Assembly (NCBI RefSeq): GCF_026676115.1
Contig: NZ_JAPONB010000007.1
Span: 124,001-188,000 of the forward strand
Length of the DNA: 64,000 nucleotides
DNA from: Salinimicrobium sp. TH3
GTDB taxonomy: Bacteria > Bacteroidota > Bacteroidia > Flavobacteriales > Flavobacteriaceae
Direction of reading: 5' to 3'
Positions 41,236 to 47,547 of the stretch are shown piece by piece; the stretch's first letter is position 1; each line of letters opens with the position of its first letter. The notes under the pieces were generated by a model, which saw only the letters and a list, made by a program, of their open reading frames with translations, made no database searches and was not told where the DNA came from. Position numbers and translations under genes: made by a program.

Positions 41236-41319
41236 TTATTTAAAATAATTCCAAATAAGGTTTGGTGGCTGAAGCCCGTCCTTTATATTTGCGGTATTAT
41301 TTTAAATAAGTCTAAATAA
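41236..41319 (+). promoter_or_regulatory. Promoter bracketed by two 23-bp operator-like sites (predicted Fur/iron box)
   Basis: Site A is 41236-41258 and site B is 41297-41319. They match at 20 of 23 positions and share TTATTT at the left, AAATAA in the middle and AAATAA at the right end. Between them lie TTTG (41261-41264), 19 bp, and TATATTTG (41284-41291), the Bacteroidota -33/-7 promoter. Site B covers the expected transcript start and site A abuts the -33 box. A repressor bound to both would shut off the operon. Fur or a related metal regulator is likely because the genes downstream are iron-associated, but this is inferred from sequence alone. Confidence 0.65.
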
Positions 41320-41326
41320 AATAGAA

Positions 41327-42538
41327 ATGAAAAAATCTTTATTCGCAGCCTTGTTAGGAGGTTTGGCGCTTTCATCTTGTTCCTCAGATGATGATATCAC
41401 AGTTGTTGAGCCTACTGTTGAAATTCCAACCAGTTATTCCTTTTCCAGGGAAGGGAGCACATCAGTAAGTTATAGCGGCCAGACAACCAGGCTGGAAATG
41501 TCAAAAGAGTTGTTTACTGCATTTAATGATTTTGACAACGCTACAGAAGAAAGCCTCTCCAATATGTTTGCGAATGAGAATAATCCTTTTTCTTCCGACG
41601 ATTTAAATTCAAGTTCAAAAAGCGTAAAAAGCAAAGTGGCAGCTTCACAGGCCTACTTTTCTGGTAACTCTGTGGAGAGCAATGATATCAAAAATGAATT
41701 TGAAGGCTGGATTAGTCAGCAGGTAAATGAAGTTTTTCCAAATAAAGACCAGGTTGCTGCTGCGGGAGTGGCAGGACAAATTGCCGATGGTTCCAATGTG
41801 CGTTACGTAAATGCTCAGGGACTTGAGTTAAATCAGGTTTTTGCCAAAAGCCTTATTGGCGGATTGGTCGCAGATCAAATGCTTAATAATTATCTTTCAA
41901 CAGCAGTGCTTGATGAGGGAGATAATATCGCAAACAACGATGCAAAAGTTCTGGAAGACGGAAAGAACTACACAACCATGGAGCACAAGTGGGATGAGGC
42001 ATATGGATATCTTTATGGAGATTCTTCTATCCCTACAGATAATCCTAACAATGCTTTGGGTGAAAGTAATGACAAGCTTCTATTCAACTATTTGGGTAGA
42101 GTTGATGCTGATGATGATTTTGCCGGAATTGCTGAAGATGTTTTTGAAGCTTTTAAAACAGGACGTGCTGCCATTGTCGCAGGAGACTATGAACTTCGTG
42201 ACGAGCAAACAGCCATCATCCAGGAGAATATTTCAAAAGTAATCGCGGTGCGTGCAGTATATTACCTGCAGGGTGGAAAAGAAGCTATCGCCAATGGAGA
42301 GATGGGTTCTGCCTTTCACGACCTGTCTGAAGGATTCGGATTCCTTTATAGCCTAAGATTTACTCATGATCCTGTTACGAATGCACCTCACCTTAGCAAA
42401 TCTGAACTGGATACTTTTAAGGAGCAACTTTTAGCAGGAGAGAATGGTCTTTGGGATGTAGAGCCTGCAACTCTTGACGCCATTTCTGAAAGTATTGCAG
42501 AAGCTTTTGACTTTACTGTTGCCGAGGCGGCAGAGTAA
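41327..42538 (+). CDS. DUF4856 lipoprotein
   Basis: 403 residues. A lipoprotein signal MKKSLFAALLGGLALSSC (lipobox cysteine C18) is followed by an acidic SSDDD stretch that favours surface or outer-membrane retention. The mature domain, rich in helices, has FSREGSTSVSYSGQTTRLEM, GWISQQVNEVFPNKDQ, MEHKWDEAYGYLYG and HDLSEGFGFLYSLRF, matching DUF4856, a domain found beside imelysin-like genes in Bacteroidota. Its structure and role are unknown to me; helical, imelysin-like iron binding is a reasonable guess. It is the first gene of a four-gene operon behind the operator-like promoter at 41236. Confidence 0.87.
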   Translation: MKKSLFAALLGGLALSSCSSDDDITVVEPTVEIPTSYSFSREGSTSVSYSGQTTRLEMSKELFTAFNDFDNATEESLSNMFANENNPFSSDDLNSSSKSVKSKVAASQAYFSGNSVESNDIKNEFEGWISQQVNEVFPNKDQVAAAGVAGQIADGSNVRYVNAQGLELNQVFAKSLIGGLVADQMLNNYLSTAVLDEGDNIANNDAKVLEDGKNYTTMEHKWDEAYGYLYGDSSIPTDNPNNALGESNDKLLFNYLGRVDADDDFAGIAEDVFEAFKTGRAAIVAGDYELRDEQTAIIQENISKVIAVRAVYYLQGGKEAIANGEMGSAFHDLSEGFGFLYSLRFTHDPVTNAPHLSKSELDTFKEQLLAGENGLWDVEPATLDAISESIAEAFDFTVAEAAE

Positions 42539-42562
42539 ACAGAGAAATAAAATTAACAGAGG

Positions 42563-42640
42563 CTGTCCAAAAAGTTACTTAATCGTCATTCTGAATTTAT
42601 TTAAGGATCTTTTTAAAATTAAACTTTTTGGACAGTCTTT
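42563..42640 (+). promoter_or_regulatory. Inverted repeat between the DUF4856 and imelysin genes
   Basis: CTGTCCAAAAAGTT (42563-42576) and AACTTTTTGGACAG (42622-42635) are perfect 14-bp arms around a 45-base loop, followed by TCTTTT. It may act as a partial terminator or mRNA-processing/stability hairpin in the operon. The loop contains CGTCATTCTGAA, like the intergenic repeats. Confidence 0.55.
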
Positions 42641-42653
42641 TCAACCTTATTAT

Positions 42654-43769
42654 ATGTTCAAGAAATTAGGTATTATTTTTTTCGTAGTAGTGGGAGTAGT
42701 GTCCTGTAATTCTGATGACGGGGGGAAAGAGAGTCCGGAAGGTTCTTTTGATCGGGGAGCGATGTTAGTCAACTGGGCAGACAATATTATTATACCTTCA
42801 TATGAAGCCTTTGCCGAAACTACAGAGGATCTAAAAAACTCTGTTGCCGTTTTCAATGGGGATCCTTCCGCAGAAAACCTGGAGAGTTTAAGAGATGCTT
42901 ATGAAGAAGCCTATCTGGCTTATCAAACTGTTGCACCATTCCGCATAGGAAAAGCAGAATCCACAAATTATCACCGTTTTCTCAATATTTATCCTGCCAG
43001 TGCAGCAACGATCCAGAATAATATTGAAAGTAACAGCTACAATCTGGAACTGCCGAGCTCTGTAGATGAGCAGGGTTTTCCTGCTGTTGATTTTCTTATT
43101 AATGGTCTGGGAGCTACAGATGCCGCTACCGTAGAATTTTACACCTCGAATGGGAATGCCGCAGTTTACCAACAGTATCTTCTTGATGTGGCGACCAGGA
43201 TTGATGCTCTTACAGATGTGGTTCTGAATGACTGGAAGACCTCCTATAGAGACGTCTTTGTGAATAATACCAGTTCCTCCAGTACTGGGGCTGTAGATAT
43301 ATTTACAAATGACTATATCATGTACTATGAAATGCTGCTAAGGTCAGGTAAAATTGGGATTCCCGCCGGTGCATTTATCGGAAACCCTGCACCTGAAACT
43401 GCCGAAGCGTACTACTCTGATGGTCTTTCCAAAGAATTATATTTAAAAGCCCTAACTACGGTACAGGACTTTTTCAACGGAAAGCATTTTAACGGCAGTG
43501 GATCTGGCCCCAGCTACAAGCAGTACCTGGATTACCTGAACACGGTTAAAGGTGGAGCCGACCTTAGTGCCCTTATCAATGAGCAGTTTGAAAACATCAG
43601 GGAATTATCTTCAGGTCTGGATCCTGATCTTGCTGAACAGGTGAGAACAAATAACACGCTCATGCTACAGGTTTTTGATGCACTTCAAAAGAATGTGGTT
43701 CTGCTAAAGATCGACATGCTGCAGGCCCTGGATATAAGTATTGATTACGTAGATTCCGACGGTGATTAG
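42654..43769 (+). CDS. Imelysin-like lipoprotein (peptidase M75 family)
   Basis: 371 residues from the ATG at 42654. The frame is open further 5' but that part overlaps the preceding gene and a hairpin. The lipobox is VVGVVSC (C18). The domain is helical and duplicated, as in imelysins: NWADNIIIPSYEAFAETTEDLKNSVAVF, then SLRDAYEEAYLAYQTV, and later MYYEMLLRSGKIGIPAGAFIG. Where canonical imelysins carry GxHxxE, this protein has G141-F-P143-A-V-D146, so His and Glu are replaced by Pro and Asp. Imelysins are iron-regulated surface proteins thought to aid iron uptake. It is the second gene of the operon, ending 3 bases before the carboxylase-like gene. Confidence 0.88.
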   Translation: MFKKLGIIFFVVVGVVSCNSDDGGKESPEGSFDRGAMLVNWADNIIIPSYEAFAETTEDLKNSVAVFNGDPSAENLESLRDAYEEAYLAYQTVAPFRIGKAESTNYHRFLNIYPASAATIQNNIESNSYNLELPSSVDEQGFPAVDFLINGLGATDAATVEFYTSNGNAAVYQQYLLDVATRIDALTDVVLNDWKTSYRDVFVNNTSSSSTGAVDIFTNDYIMYYEMLLRSGKIGIPAGAFIGNPAPETAEAYYSDGLSKELYLKALTTVQDFFNGKHFNGSGSGPSYKQYLDYLNTVKGGADLSALINEQFENIRELSSGLDPDLAEQVRTNNTLMLQVFDALQKNVVLLKIDMLQALDISIDYVDSDGD

Positions 43770-43772
43770 GTA

Positions 43773-45137
43773 ATGAACAATTTGATCTCAAACTATTTTA
43801 GAAAAGATTCGGAAGCCGCTCCTTTAGCGGTTTTCCGAATTTTTTTTGGAATCATGATGTTTGGCAGTATCCTTCGGTTCTGGCTTAACGGCTGGATCGA
43901 AAAACTTTATATCGCTCCCGATTTTTTCTTTTCTTACTACGGCTTTGAATGGGTTAAGCCACTGGGGAATTTCACCTATATTCTCTTCCTTCTTTGCGGG
44001 ATTTCCGCATTAATGATCGCTTTCGGCTATAAATACAGATTAGCCACAATTACTTTTTTCCTGAGCTTCACCTATATCGAGCTCATGGATAAGACCACTT
44101 ACCTCAATCATTACTATTTTATAAGTATCCTTGGATTTCTTCTGATATTCTTACCTGCATCTTCATATTTTTCAGTAGACGCTTATAGAGATCCAAAAAA
44201 GGCATTTCAGAGGGTGCCTTCCTGGTGCATCGACAGCATCAAATTACTATTAGCCATGGTGTACTTTTATGCCGGGCTGGCGAAAATAAATTCAGATTGG
44301 CTTTTTAGGGCTATGCCTTTAAAGATCTGGCTTCCGTCAAATTACGACCTTCCTCTCCTGGGTGATCTTTTGCAGCAGGAATGGGTTCATTATTTTTTTA
44401 GCTGGACAGGGATGATCTACGACCTGGCCATTCCTTTTCTCTTATTTTTTAGGAAGACACGGCGTCTTGCATTTGTGCTGGTCGTTGTTTTCCATGTGTT
44501 AACAAGGATACTCTTTCCAATCGGAATGTTTCCTTATATCATGATCGTGAGTGCCCTCATCTTCTTTGATACCGGTTTACACCATAAGATCCTTCAAAAA
44601 ATTTCTAGCTTGATCAAAATTTCAAAATCTCGTTTTGACAATGCCAAAACCTTCCATTACCTTCCAAAAAAGCGAAAAATATTGCTTTCTTTTCTCAGCT
44701 TGTTCTTTTTGATCCAGTTCCTTTTTCCGTGGCGGTACCTGCTATATCCGGGAGAGCTGTTCTGGACAGAAGAAGGCTTCAGGTTTTCCTGGAGAGTGAT
44801 GTTGATGGAAAAAGCCGGTTATGCTCAGTTCAGGATCGTCGACAGGGAGAATGGAAAAAGCTTCTATGTCAATAATGGCAATTTTCTAACTCCTTTCCAG
44901 GAAAAACAAATGTCTTTTCAGCCCGATTTTATTCTTCAGTACGCTCATTTTCTTGGCGATCATTATAGAAAAAAAGGAATTGAGCAGGTTGAGGTTTATG
45001 TGGATAGCCACGTCGCCCTCAATGGAAGAAAAAGTACCCCCTTTATAAACCCCCGGGTCAATTTGCTTGAACATCAGGACACGTTCAGGCAAAAAACCTT
45101 TATTTTACCATTTAATGATACCATCAAAGGTCTTTAG
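43773..45137 (+). CDS. Vitamin-K-dependent gamma-carboxylase homologue (HTTM domain protein)
   Basis: 454 residues. The N-terminal ~320 residues hold several membrane helices with the HTTM/VKGC pattern: DKTTYLNHYYF (106-116, H113 at the position of human GGCX His160), YAGLAKINSDWL (K171 at the position of the catalytic Lys218), and DLAIPFLLFF plus FPIGMFPYIM (217-257), which parallel human segments closely. The C-terminal ~130 residues match the lumenal part: FRFSWRVML (336-344), a GKSFYVNNGNFLTP segment, and VEVYVDSHVALNGR then INPRVNLL. So it is a full-length homologue, not only the transfer domain. It may carboxylate glutamate in exported proteins using menaquinone. Translationally linked within the operon. 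Confidence 0.88.
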   Translation: MNNLISNYFRKDSEAAPLAVFRIFFGIMMFGSILRFWLNGWIEKLYIAPDFFFSYYGFEWVKPLGNFTYILFLLCGISALMIAFGYKYRLATITFFLSFTYIELMDKTTYLNHYYFISILGFLLIFLPASSYFSVDAYRDPKKAFQRVPSWCIDSIKLLLAMVYFYAGLAKINSDWLFRAMPLKIWLPSNYDLPLLGDLLQQEWVHYFFSWTGMIYDLAIPFLLFFRKTRRLAFVLVVVFHVLTRILFPIGMFPYIMIVSALIFFDTGLHHKILQKISSLIKISKSRFDNAKTFHYLPKKRKILLSFLSLFFLIQFLFPWRYLLYPGELFWTEEGFRFSWRVMLMEKAGYAQFRIVDRENGKSFYVNNGNFLTPFQEKQMSFQPDFILQYAHFLGDHYRKKGIEQVEVYVDSHVALNGRKSTPFINPRVNLLEHQDTFRQKTFILPFNDTIKGL

Positions 45138-47547
45138 TTTTTTACTTTGTTCACTATTTTCCCTTAGTGCTGTGGCGCAGTTTTCTTTAAGCGGAAAAAT
45201 TATCTCTTCAGAAACCCAGGCTCCTGTGCCCGATGCAGAGATCTATAACCGAACTACAGGAAATCTTATTACTACCGATGAAAACGGAAGGTTTGTTATT
45301 GAAGATCTACCCGCCGGGAATTATGATCTGGCCATCTTTAGTTATCAATTTCAAGTACTGGAGAGAAAAATTGAACTTTCAGAAGACAGGGAGATTGTTT
45401 TCGAACTTGCTCCCCTGGCAGAAACTCTTTCTGAAGTAGTCCTCATAGAAAGGCGAAAGGAGATTTTTGCGCTTCGTAATCTTAAAAAGGTTGAAGGTAC
45501 AGCCATTTATGCAGGGAAGAAATCTGAAGTTGTCCTTATGGAAGAGATCACCGGAAATCTTGCTGCCAACAACTCCCGTCAGATCTACAATCAGGTGGTG
45601 GGACTAAACATCTATGACAATGGTGATGCCGGTCTACAGCTGAATATTGGGGGGCGCGGGCTGGATCCCAACCGAACCCAGAACTTCAATACCCGCCAAA
45701 ACGGCTATGATATTTCTGCAGATGTTTTGGGTTATCCTGAAAGTTATTACACTCCTCCCGCAGAAGCCCTTAGCGAGATCCAGGTGATTCGTGGGGCGGC
45801 TTCCCTGCAGTATGGAACACAGTTTGGCGGACTTATTAATTTCAAATTCAGGAAGCCCAATCCTTATAAAAAAATTGAGCTGGTGACAAGGCAATCTGTC
45901 GGCTCCTTTGACCTCTTCACCAGCTTCAACAGCCTGAGTGGGACTGTAGGGAAGTTTAGTTACTACACTTATTATAACTATAAATCAGGGAATGGATTCA
46001 GAGAAAATTCAGGATATGAATCCCACAATGCATTTGCCCATTTTGGATGGGAATTTAGCGAGGATACAAAAGTTTCTTTCGAGTACACTTTTCTCGATTA
46101 TCTCGCTCAGCAGCCGGGAGGTTTAACCGATTTTCAGTTTTATAAAAATCCCGATTTTAGTAACAGGGAGAGAAATTGGTTTGATGTCAACTGGAATCTT
46201 TGGGCTCTTAAATTTGAACATAAATTCTCTCAAAAAACCGATTTCACATTTAATTTCTTCGGCCTGGATGCTTCGAGAAAAGCCCTGGGCTTTCGCCAAA
46301 ACAGGGTGTCACAAGCAGATGATCCATTGGAGGCAAGAGAGCTTTTAACAGACAACTTCAACAATTGGGGGGCAGAAGCAAGAATTCTCACGAGATATAA
46401 CCTTTTTGATGAGGAGTCGGTCCTGCTTTTAGGAAGTAAATACTACACTGCCAAAAATGAGCAGCGGCAAGGCCCCGGAACTGCAGCTTCAGGTCCTGAT
46501 TTTACGTTCGCAGCAGAACAATTTCCAAATTACACAAGACAGTCCGAATTTGTTTTCCCAAACAGGAACATTGCGTTTTTTGGAGAGAACATCTTCAACT
46601 TAACCGGAAAATTCTCTGTTACTCCGGGATTTAGGTTCGAATATATAAACACCCAAAGCGAAGGAAGCTACAAAGATATTCAGCTGGACCTTGCCGGGAA
46701 TATTTTAAAAAACGAAACGCTGCAGGACAACAGACAGTTTGAACGGAGTTTTGTTCTGCTGGGGCTTGGAGCCAGTTATGAATTGGAGGGAGCAGAGATC
46801 TACGGGAATATTTCTCAAAATTATCGCTCTGTGACTTTTAATGATATTCGGGTAGTAAACCCGGTTTTTAAACTGGATCCGGATATTAGTGATGAAGAAG
46901 GCTTTACGGCCGATATTGGGGTGAGGGGGAGATTGAAAAAATTTCTTTCTTATGATCTTAGCGTCTTTGCCCTTCAATACAACGAACGGATTGGCGAAGA
47001 TTTTGTGCCTGCAACAGCGGTGCGTTTTCGTGGAAATATTGGAGATGCTTTTATTTACGGTCTTGAAACTTTTGCAGACTGGAACATCAAAAACACCTTT
47101 TTTAAGGGGGCAGATGATTATATAGCCGGTGCATTTGTGAATGCGGCTTTTACCGAATCTGAATATACTAGTTCAGATAGGAACAATGTGGAGGGGAACC
47201 AGGTTGAATTTATACCTGCAGTAAATGTGAAAACAGGAGTGGATTTTGGATTTAGGAATTTCCTGGGAAGCCTTCAATATACCTATTTGTCAAAACAATT
47301 TACAGATGCGACCAATGCGCCCCAGGTAAAGAGTGATTCCCAACGTGGGATCGAAGGTGCAATTCCTGCATATGGTATTATGGATTTATCGCTATCCTAC
47401 AAGTATAAGATCTTCAGGTTGGAAACGGGAATTAACAACCTGCTCGATAATTCCTATTTTACAAACAGGGCGACAGGATACCCGGGCCCGGGAATTATTC
47501 CGGCGCAACCCTTGACCTGGTACACTTCTCTGCAAATGAAGTTGTAG
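45115..47547 (+). CDS. TonB-dependent outer-membrane receptor (iron-transport type)
   Basis: 810 residues from the ATG at 45115, overlapping the previous gene by 23 bases. The signal peptide MIPSKVFSFLLCSLFSLSAVAQ follows directly; an earlier TTG is unlikely. A carboxypeptidase-like domain (SLSGKIISSETQAPVPDAEIYN) and then the plug (VLIERRKEIFALRNLKKVEGTAIYAGKKSEV, LQLNIGGRGLDPNRTQNFNTRQNGYDI, IQVIRGAASLQYGTQFGGLINF) and a long barrel resemble FecA-like ferric-chelate receptors. The last residues (TWYTSLQMKL) form the closing strand. As fourth gene of the operon, with imelysin and a carboxylase-like protein, it is probably the outer-membrane gate for the chelate. The ligand is unknown. Confidence 0.93.
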   Translation: MIPSKVFSFLLCSLFSLSAVAQFSLSGKIISSETQAPVPDAEIYNRTTGNLITTDENGRFVIEDLPAGNYDLAIFSYQFQVLERKIELSEDREIVFELAPLAETLSEVVLIERRKEIFALRNLKKVEGTAIYAGKKSEVVLMEEITGNLAANNSRQIYNQVVGLNIYDNGDAGLQLNIGGRGLDPNRTQNFNTRQNGYDISADVLGYPESYYTPPAEALSEIQVIRGAASLQYGTQFGGLINFKFRKPNPYKKIELVTRQSVGSFDLFTSFNSLSGTVGKFSYYTYYNYKSGNGFRENSGYESHNAFAHFGWEFSEDTKVSFEYTFLDYLAQQPGGLTDFQFYKNPDFSNRERNWFDVNWNLWALKFEHKFSQKTDFTFNFFGLDASRKALGFRQNRVSQADDPLEARELLTDNFNNWGAEARILTRYNLFDEESVLLLGSKYYTAKNEQRQGPGTAASGPDFTFAAEQFPNYTRQSEFVFPNRNIAFFGENIFNLTGKFSVTPGFRFEYINTQSEGSYKDIQLDLAGNILKNETLQDNRQFERSFVLLGLGASYELEGAEIYGNISQNYRSVTFNDIRVVNPVFKLDPDISDEEGFTADIGVRGRLKKFLSYDLSVFALQYNERIGEDFVPATAVRFRGNIGDAFIYGLETFADWNIKNTFFKGADDYIAGAFVNAAFTESEYTSSDRNNVEGNQVEFIPAVNVKTGVDFGFRNFLGSLQYTYLSKQFTDATNAPQVKSDSQRGIEGAIPAYGIMDLSLSYKYKIFRLETGINNLLDNSYFTNRATGYPGPGIIPAQPLTWYTSLQMKL

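What the first reader, a model, noticed from the sequence alone, without database searches (positions are those of the whole stretch)
43773..45137. Full-length vitamin-K-dependent gamma-carboxylase homologue in a flavobacterial metal operon
The protein matches the human gamma-glutamyl carboxylase along its length, not only the short HTTM region. Seen in sequence: DKTTYLNHYYF with H113 where human His160 lies, YAGLAKINSDW with K171 where the catalytic Lys218 lies, DLAIPFLLFF and FPIGMFPYIM, and the lumenal-type segments FRFSWRVML, VYVDSHVALNGR and INPRVNLL. Known: the human enzyme turns Glu into Gla using vitamin K hydroquinone, and flavobacteria make menaquinone, a vitamin K. Inference: it carboxylates Glu in exported neighbours (lipoproteins at 41327 and 42654, or the TonB receptor) to make metal-binding sites.
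Basis: partly seen in the sequence, partly recalled or inferred. Interest (0 to 1): 0.78.

Follow-up and report, generated by a model that had tools for sequence, protein, structure and literature searches.

The report
Vitamin-K carboxylase relative in iron operon
A marine bacterium carries, in an iron-starvation gene cluster, a close relative of the human vitamin-K enzyme that matures blood-clotting proteins, and relatives that lack it usually carry an unrelated oxygen-using membrane enzyme instead.

Summary
Confirmed: 43773-45137 encodes a 454-aa full-length member of the vitamin K-dependent gamma-carboxylase (VKGC) family: HTTM plus lumenal domain, E~1e-39 to human GGCX over 437 residues, and a confident model whose only significant PDB matches are GGCX. 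K171 and H113 align with K218 and H160. It is not rare (PF22777 in 115 of 149 Flavobacteriaceae genomes). It is the third gene of a conserved operon (DUF4856 lipoprotein, imelysin, VKGC, TonB receptor) with Fur-box-like sites; a like-annotated Riemerella cluster is listed as Fur-regulated. The substrate claim is open: no Glu in the neighbours tracks VKGC, K217 and the distal propeptide-binding part are missing, and no VKOR was found. New here: 13 of 13 fetched VKGC-less operons come from genomes with a specific FA_hydroxylase-family gene (9 adjacent), and in 8 independent pairs the two genes go opposite ways (p 0.008). Against strict exclusion: two Tenacibaculum loci and two genomes with both, and 6 of 21 VKGC-less DUF4856 genomes with neither. 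Best reading: VKGC is an oxygen-dependent maturation enzyme of an iron-uptake lipoprotein system, and a hydroxylase can stand in for it. Whether it makes Gla is untested.

The parts
43773..45137 (+). VKGC-family gene, 454 aa (HTTM domain res 13-266, lumenal domain res 301-449)
44106..44111 (+). codons of N112-H113 (human N159-H160, Glu-binding pocket)
   Evidence: N159 and H160 kept in 70 of 70 operon VKGCs
44283..44285 (+). codon of K171 (human K218, base that deprotonates vitamin K hydroquinone)
   Evidence: 70 of 70; role from PMC12589487
41327..42538 (+). DUF4856 lipoprotein (PF16148); touches NCBIfam 'FEA1-related lipoprotein' far below its cut-off (28.3 of 250 bits)
   Evidence: confident mostly helical model without significant PDB match
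42654..43769 (+). imelysin lipoprotein (PF09375), IPPA-like motif variant (GFPAVD), C-terminus DSDGD
45115..47547 (+). TonB-dependent receptor; nearest NCBIfam model TIGR01783 (siderophore receptor) below its cut-off; start overlaps the end of the VKGC gene
   Evidence: start codon chosen by reading
41238..41256 (.). Fur-box-like site (2 mismatches to the Riemerella 19-bp box)
   Evidence: site common upstream of DUF4856
41299..41317 (.). second Fur-box-like site (3 mismatches)

Best explanation
The gene encodes a membrane-embedded, probably active member of the vitamin K-dependent gamma-carboxylase family that uses menaquinol, O2 and probably CO2. It serves as the oxygen-dependent maturation enzyme of a Fur-controlled iron-acquisition system made of two exported lipoproteins (DUF4856 and imelysin) and a TonB receptor. 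Supported by comparison: family membership, intact pocket, conserved operon with Fur-box-like sites, link to the lipoproteins, repeated replacement by a hydroxylase of another family. Inferred: that the reaction is carboxylation of Glu (or Asp) in one of the lipoproteins, that this makes a metal ligand, and that the hydroxylase does an equivalent job.
For: Family and fold. Pocket (human N159, H160, K218, W223, G259, F286, H287, F299, W399, M402) identical in 70 of 70 operon VKGCs, F294 in 68 of 70. DUF4856-imelysin-VKGC-TonB in one order and strand in 40 of 40 fetched top-scoring family loci and as exactly these four hits in 68 of 80 named loci. Fur-box-like site within 3 mismatches upstream of DUF4856 in 128 of 156 distinct upstream regions (131 of 159 before removal of duplicates) against 32 of 1143 other ORFs and 14 of 3180 mononucleotide shuffles. 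Riemerella RAYM_09779-09794 (TonB receptor, VKGC, imelysin, hypothetical by annotation) are in the table of putative Fur-regulated genes (PMC5609570, passages). Link to the lipoproteins: DUF4856-VKGC without imelysin (L168, L187) and imelysin-VKGC without DUF4856 (L222; 7 group C loci) in the stretches fetched; at L085, with the window's outer neighbours but neither lipoprotein, the pocket has decayed (N159S, H160S, F286S, H287Q, G259L, M402A). Replacement: 13 of 13 fetched VKGC-less operons lie in genomes with the FA_hydroxylase subfamily; 8 independent pairs, opposite in 7.9 on average, median p 0.0078.
Against: No substrate Glu found. No VKOR match in the own genome and in only 3 of 42 family operon genomes (lists), so no classical vitamin K cycle. 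K217, N158, M401, H404 and mostly R436 of human GGCX are changed; K217 supports substrate binding in human (PMC12589487). FA_hydroxylase sites usually face the cytoplasm and VKGC sites the exported side (recalled), which fits a shared protein substrate poorly. Both enzymes occur together at L231 and L233 and in genomes G153 and G234; 6 of 21 strong-DUF4856 genomes without VKGC also lack the hydroxylase. Nine of the 13 hydroxylases built the model that finds them. The decayed-pocket case is one locus.
Confidence: 0.45

Rival explanations
1. It modifies a membrane lipid, the quinone or a small ligand of the iron system instead of a protein. The FA_hydroxylase that replaces it would act on the same lipid or ligand.
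For: The replacement partner belongs to a lipid-hydroxylase superfamily (PF04116; the only NCBIfam match of the two tested is ornithine-lipid hydroxylase OlsE, 44-58 bits against a cut-off of 475). On 8 hand-picked pairs no column of DUF4856 or imelysin and one hydrophobic TonB column follow the swap.
Against: The Glu-binding residues N159 and H160 are as conserved as the quinone pocket. The constant partners are lipoproteins and a TonB receptor.
Confidence: 0.25
2. Epoxidase that uses the vitamin K base for some other acceptor, as reported for the Leptospira homologue (recalled, not read here).
For: Quinone pocket intact; K217, N158 and R436 changed; distal propeptide-binding part missing. 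One tested bacterial homologue is recalled to epoxidise without carboxylating.
Against: N159 and H160, Glu side-chain contacts in human GGCX (PMC12589487), are kept in 70 of 70; Y395 is Tyr in 56 and Phe in 14.
Confidence: 0.2
3. Non-catalytic membrane partner (scaffold or channel) of the iron system.
For: No activity is shown here, and the role of bacterial HTTM proteins is largely unknown (recalled).
Against: Catalytic pocket invariant in 70 of 70 operon copies and decayed at the one locus without the lipoproteins (L085).
Confidence: 0.06

Closest known systems
Human gamma-glutamyl carboxylase (GGCX)
   Same: HTTM and first lumenal part, fold, K218, H160, N159 and most of the quinone pocket
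   Different: Match ends at human 504; rest of the propeptide-binding domain and arch domain missing; K217A, N158L, M401V, H404M, R436Q in the window; no VKOR match; substrate unknown
Riemerella anatipestifer RAYM_09779-09794 (TonB receptor, VKGC, imelysin, hypothetical)
   Same: By annotation and order apparently the same operon; listed among putative Fur-regulated genes (PMC5609570, passages). Sequences were not compared here
   Different: Only expression is reported in the passages I saw
PA4370-PA4373-type imelysin/EfeB operons and EfeUOB
   Same: Imelysin, Fur control, iron uptake (PMC3143127, passages)
   Different: There the partner enzyme is a di-haem peroxidase; here VKGC plus DUF4856 and a TonB receptor
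MbnP/MbnH pair
   Same: Works-like comparison: an oxidative di-haem enzyme paired with an exported partner protein, often near TonB-dependent transporters (PMC3621798, passages; kynurenine copper ligand recalled)
   Different: Di-haem enzyme, copper, no relation in sequence
Own second VKGC copy (L002, beside ribF)
   Same: Same two domains and catalytic residues
   Different: 34% identical; keeps human N158, N290 and M401; no imelysin in the 3.8 kb fetched

Membership tests
Vitamin K-dependent gamma-carboxylase (VKGC) | HTTM domain PF05090 above cut-off | tested here: met
   274.6 bits, cut-off 27.7
Vitamin K-dependent gamma-carboxylase (VKGC) | Lumenal domain PF22777 above cut-off | tested here: met
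   201.5 bits, cut-off 27.7
Vitamin K-dependent gamma-carboxylase (VKGC) | Catalytic base K218 and Glu-pocket N159, H160 | tested here: met
   K171, N112, H113; 70 of 70 operon copies
Vitamin K-dependent gamma-carboxylase (VKGC) | Vitamin K pocket F286, F294, F299, W223, G259, M401 | tested here: met
   Five of six kept in the window; M401 is Val in 70 of 70 operon copies
Vitamin K-dependent gamma-carboxylase (VKGC) | GGCX fold | tested here: met
   TMq up to 0.84; 16 of 16 significant matches are GGCX
Animal GGCX (sub-group) | K217 and the complete propeptide-binding domain (substrate exosite) | tested here: not met
   A170; match ends at human 504
Vitamin K-dependent gamma-carboxylase (VKGC) | Glu to Gla carboxylation with quinone epoxidation | not testable with these tools
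   Needs assay or mass spectrometry
Vitamin K cycle | VKOR (PF07884) to recycle the epoxide | tested here: not met
   0 matches in own genome; 23 of 149 family genomes
IPPA-type imelysin (gene 42654) | Pro in place of His in GxHxxE, canonical order, closest to 3pf0 | tested here: inconclusive
   Window reads GFPAVD (His to Pro as in IPPA, but Glu to Asp); profile A4 hits 3pf0 at 2.3e-23 over its length in canonical order, but permuted 3n8u scores higher, 2.9e-33, in two stretches
Fur-regulated iron operon | Fur box upstream | tested here: met
   binding itself not tested

The most novel reading that the evidence does not exclude
A vitamin K-type carboxylase and a di-iron membrane hydroxylase are interchangeable, oxygen-dependent maturation enzymes of one bacterial iron-uptake system: each installs its own oxygenated or carboxylated iron ligand on the same DUF4856/imelysin lipoprotein partners, so that protein carboxylation would exist in free-living bacteria as a metal-capture modification.
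Probability: 0.25. Interest if true: 0.88.

Novelty: new variant of a known kind. Interest (0 to 1): 0.62.

Why it matters
What VKGC homologues do in bacteria is, as far as I know (recalled), an open question. The operon gives a testable partner set, a likely inducing condition (iron starvation), natural VKGC-less versions and a candidate replacement enzyme. If a Gla-like ligand is found, the clotting-factor modification would have a bacterial role in iron capture; if not, the swap with a hydroxylase points to what else the chemistry is for.

Tried and rejected
Imelysin C-terminal DxDGD as a VKGC target: 69 of 69 fetched VKGC-positive and 13 of 13 VKGC-less operon imelysins end in DGD, and so does Psychrobacter 3pf0, so the tail is not tied to VKGC.

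Glu column that appears with VKGC: none among the 15 most discriminating columns of each protein; no Glu conserved in 85% or more of VKGC-positive rows falls below 9 of 13 in VKGC-less rows. On 8 hand-picked pairs one hydrophobic TonB column only (V319) passes my cut. Imelysin D354 (Asp in 65 of 70 VKGC-positive, 5 of 13 VKGC-less rows) goes with VKGC in 5 of the 8 pairs and against it in 2.

Gla-domain-like Glu clusters: at most 8, 7 and 10 Glu in 45 residues of DUF4856, imelysin and TonB receptor; no control was run, so no conclusion.

DUF4856 as an imelysin relative: the profile comparison matched the signal peptide only; no significant PDB match by fold or sequence.

VKOR co-occurrence: not supported.

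Papers: the ten searches listed none that I recognised as treating this operon's VKGC function or a VKGC/hydroxylase swap; open-access library only, and the list was capped at 15 of 577.

Rows dropped: 10 genomes with weak DUF4856 matches before the class count; L120 (DUF4856 without imelysin or TonB gene) and L134 (cut by the contig end) before the operon count; family VKGC-positive operons thinned to every third for the tree (57 of 83 rows). L243 and L244 (VKGC-less operons with a divergent hydroxylase) were fetched because of the hydroxylase and are in no count.

Full report
OBSERVATION. The ORF at 43773-45137 (+) encodes 454 aa. Pfam places HTTM at residues 13-266 (1.2e-81) and the VKGC lumenal domain at 301-449 (8.7e-60). 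In the PDB 8 distinct sequences match at E up to 1, all GGCX, 9.9e-40 to 3.5e-39, query 10-446 to human 56-504. An AlphaFold2 model from 37 window and locus sequences has pLDDT 90.3 and pTM 0.90; Foldseek finds 16 PDB chains at E<=0.001, all GGCX, TMq 0.67-0.84. This is far beyond chance.

ACTIVE SITE. Residue roles are from PMC12589487 (parts 1 and 2 of 3 read): K218 is the base; N159, H160 and Y395 hold the Glu side chain; F286, F294, F299, H160, V210, M401 and W223 hold the naphthoquinone; K217 supports substrate binding but not catalysis. Window: K171, N112, H113, F336 (for Y395), F240, F248, F253, V163, V342 (for M401), W176, A170 (for K217). In 70 operon VKGCs K218, N159, H160, W223, G259, F286, H287, F299, W399 and M402 are identical in 70 and F294 in 68; K217 is Ala in 69, N158 is Leu in 70, M401 is Val in 70, R436 is Gln in 48 and Met in 21, Y395 is Tyr in 56 and Phe in 14. 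The chemistry pocket is kept; several human substrate-docking residues are not, and what follows human 504 is missing.

DISTRIBUTION. PF22777 occurs in 115 of 149 Flavobacteriaceae genomes and 80 of 295 genomes of the class sample. The own genome has two HTTM genes; the second, L002, lies beside a ribF-like gene (by reading) and is 34% identical to the first. So the protein as such is ordinary for these bacteria.

OPERON. The 40 family loci fetched for their top PF22777 scores, and L076, all read DUF4856-imelysin-VKGC-TonB receptor on one strand (in L036 the DUF4856 gene is cut by the contig end). Of 80 named loci 68 show exactly these four hits and 12 differ, several through contig ends or extra genes. 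Upstream of DUF4856 a Fur-box-like site within 3 mismatches lies in 131 of 159 loci (128 of 156 distinct upstream regions), against 32 of 1143 other ORFs of 200 aa or more in the same loci and 14 of 3180 mononucleotide shuffles; the window has two. In Riemerella four neighbouring genes annotated TonB-dependent receptor, VKGC, imelysin and hypothetical protein are in a table of putative Fur-regulated genes (PMC5609570, passages); I did not compare their sequences.

WHICH PARTNER. VKGC is found with DUF4856 and no imelysin or TonB gene (L168, L187), with imelysin and TonB receptor but no DUF4856 (L222), and directly behind an imelysin in 7 loci that hold a second imelysin (group C: L087, L091, L092, L102-L104, L108; the gene between the imelysins is a di-haem oxidoreductase in L087, the one tested). 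L085 has the window's outer neighbours (HMG-CoA lyase-like gene and IMP dehydrogenase, by reading) but neither lipoprotein; its genome, G014, has no imelysin match, while DUF4856 was not searched in it. Its VKGC is full length yet lacks N159, H160, F286, H287, G259 and M402. This single case suggests that the pocket is kept for the lipoproteins.

THE SWAP. Of 82 loci with DUF4856, imelysin and TonB receptor (window not counted), 68 have VKGC and no FA_hydroxylase, 1 (L057) has VKGC and a distant FA_hydroxylase (59 bits, other subfamily), 9 have no VKGC but a nearby FA_hydroxylase (443-526 bits), and 4 have neither. Forty-one of these loci were chosen by their VKGC and 3 by their imelysin; among 40 chosen by DUF4856 alone (from 76 genomes; L120 and L134 set aside) 28 have VKGC and 0 the hydroxylase, 10 lack VKGC and 7 have it. 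The hydroxylase sits between imelysin and TonB gene (L098), before DUF4856 (L124, L128, L130, L133), divergent from it (L150) or after the TonB gene (L127, L153; L094 on the other strand). The genomes of the 4 'neither' loci hold the subfamily elsewhere (G033, G202, G331, G358), so 13 of 13; nine of the 13 built the search model A2, these four did not. The unlinked copy of G033 has its own Fur-box-like site with 2 mismatches; those of G202, G331, G358, G435, G387, G234 and G153 do not (8-9 mismatches), and G204 has 5.

At genome level, in the class sample the subfamily (245 bits or more) is in 17 of 295 genomes, and all 17 have a strong DUF4856 match. Of 66 strong-DUF4856 genomes, 45 have a VKGC (2 of them also the hydroxylase: G153, G234) and 21 have none: 15 with the hydroxylase, 6 without it (G180, G184, G236, G360, G385, G412; five of them listed as 69-91% complete, G180 as 99%) (Fisher p 2e-8, not corrected for kinship). 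In the family sample it is in 3 of 149 genomes, G002, G016 and G033, the three in which I found VKGC-less operons; the next best hit is 94 bits. These searches score at most 7 or 15 candidates a genome. G033 has a VKGC elsewhere in its genome. On a tree of the concatenated partners (57 of 83 rows, quick method without mixture) VKGC presence changes at least 8 times (shuffled labels: mean 12.0, lowest 7), and in 8 independent pairs the hydroxylase goes the other way in 7.9 on average (sign test, median p 0.0078). Against strict exclusion: two Tenacibaculum loci (L231, L233) have the hydroxylase in the VKGC slot and a VKGC with intact pocket directly after the TonB gene.

MECHANISM. The best reading is an oxygen-dependent maturation enzyme for the lipoprotein system; both alternatives use O2 (family knowledge). 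Carboxylation of a partner is the natural reaction of the family but nothing here shows it: no Glu column follows VKGC and no VKOR was found (3 of 42 family operon genomes by comparing the lists). FA_hydroxylases usually act on lipids with cytoplasmic active sites (recalled), which is why a lipid or quinone substrate is kept as the main rival. A works-like precedent is MbnH/MbnP (PMC3621798, passages; the kynurenine ligand is recalled). One hydroxylase relative (G153, 246 bits) lies directly beside an MbnP-domain gene (PF20243 over cut-off) and a di-haem CCP_MauG gene that matches the MbnH model below its cut-off.

NOVELTY. The protein is one more member of a known family, and what looks like the same operon appears in Riemerella expression data. 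The exchange between VKGC and a hydroxylase, and the dependence of the pocket on the lipoproteins, I did not find in print (searches; open-access library, listings only).

Noticed in passing
window 42560-42638: Hairpin with a 17-bp outer stem (one G-T pair) between the DUF4856 and imelysin genes (DNA fold z -4.6); could be an attenuator or a REP-like element. A 27-base piece of its loop occurs once in the window.
   Followed up: partly
L002:1444-2799: Second VKGC of the own genome, beside a ribF-like gene, keeps human N158, N290 and M401; 16 of 16 group B copies keep K218 and H160. Its partner is unknown.
   Followed up: partly
L085:4178-5545: Full-length VKGC with decayed pocket at a locus without DUF4856 and imelysin.
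   Followed up: yes
L242:2467-5464: FA_hydroxylase relative directly beside an MbnP-domain gene and a di-haem CCP_MauG (MbnH-like) gene.
   Followed up: partly
window 41327-42538: DUF4856 model (pLDDT 90.9) has no significant PDB match: possibly an unsolved fold; H220, D223, H331 and E335 invariant in 23 aligned sequences.
   Followed up: partly
window 43752-43766: Imelysin C-terminus reads DSDGD; DGD ends 82 of 82 fetched operon imelysins and Psychrobacter 3pf0; function unknown.
   Followed up: partly
L231:3427-8362, L233:3428-8362: Tenacibaculum loci with both hydroxylase and VKGC, followed in L231 by a gene for a solute-binding protein.
   Followed up: partly
L057:2614-3117: Ferritin-like ORF (by reading) next to the operon's TonB gene.
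   Followed up: no
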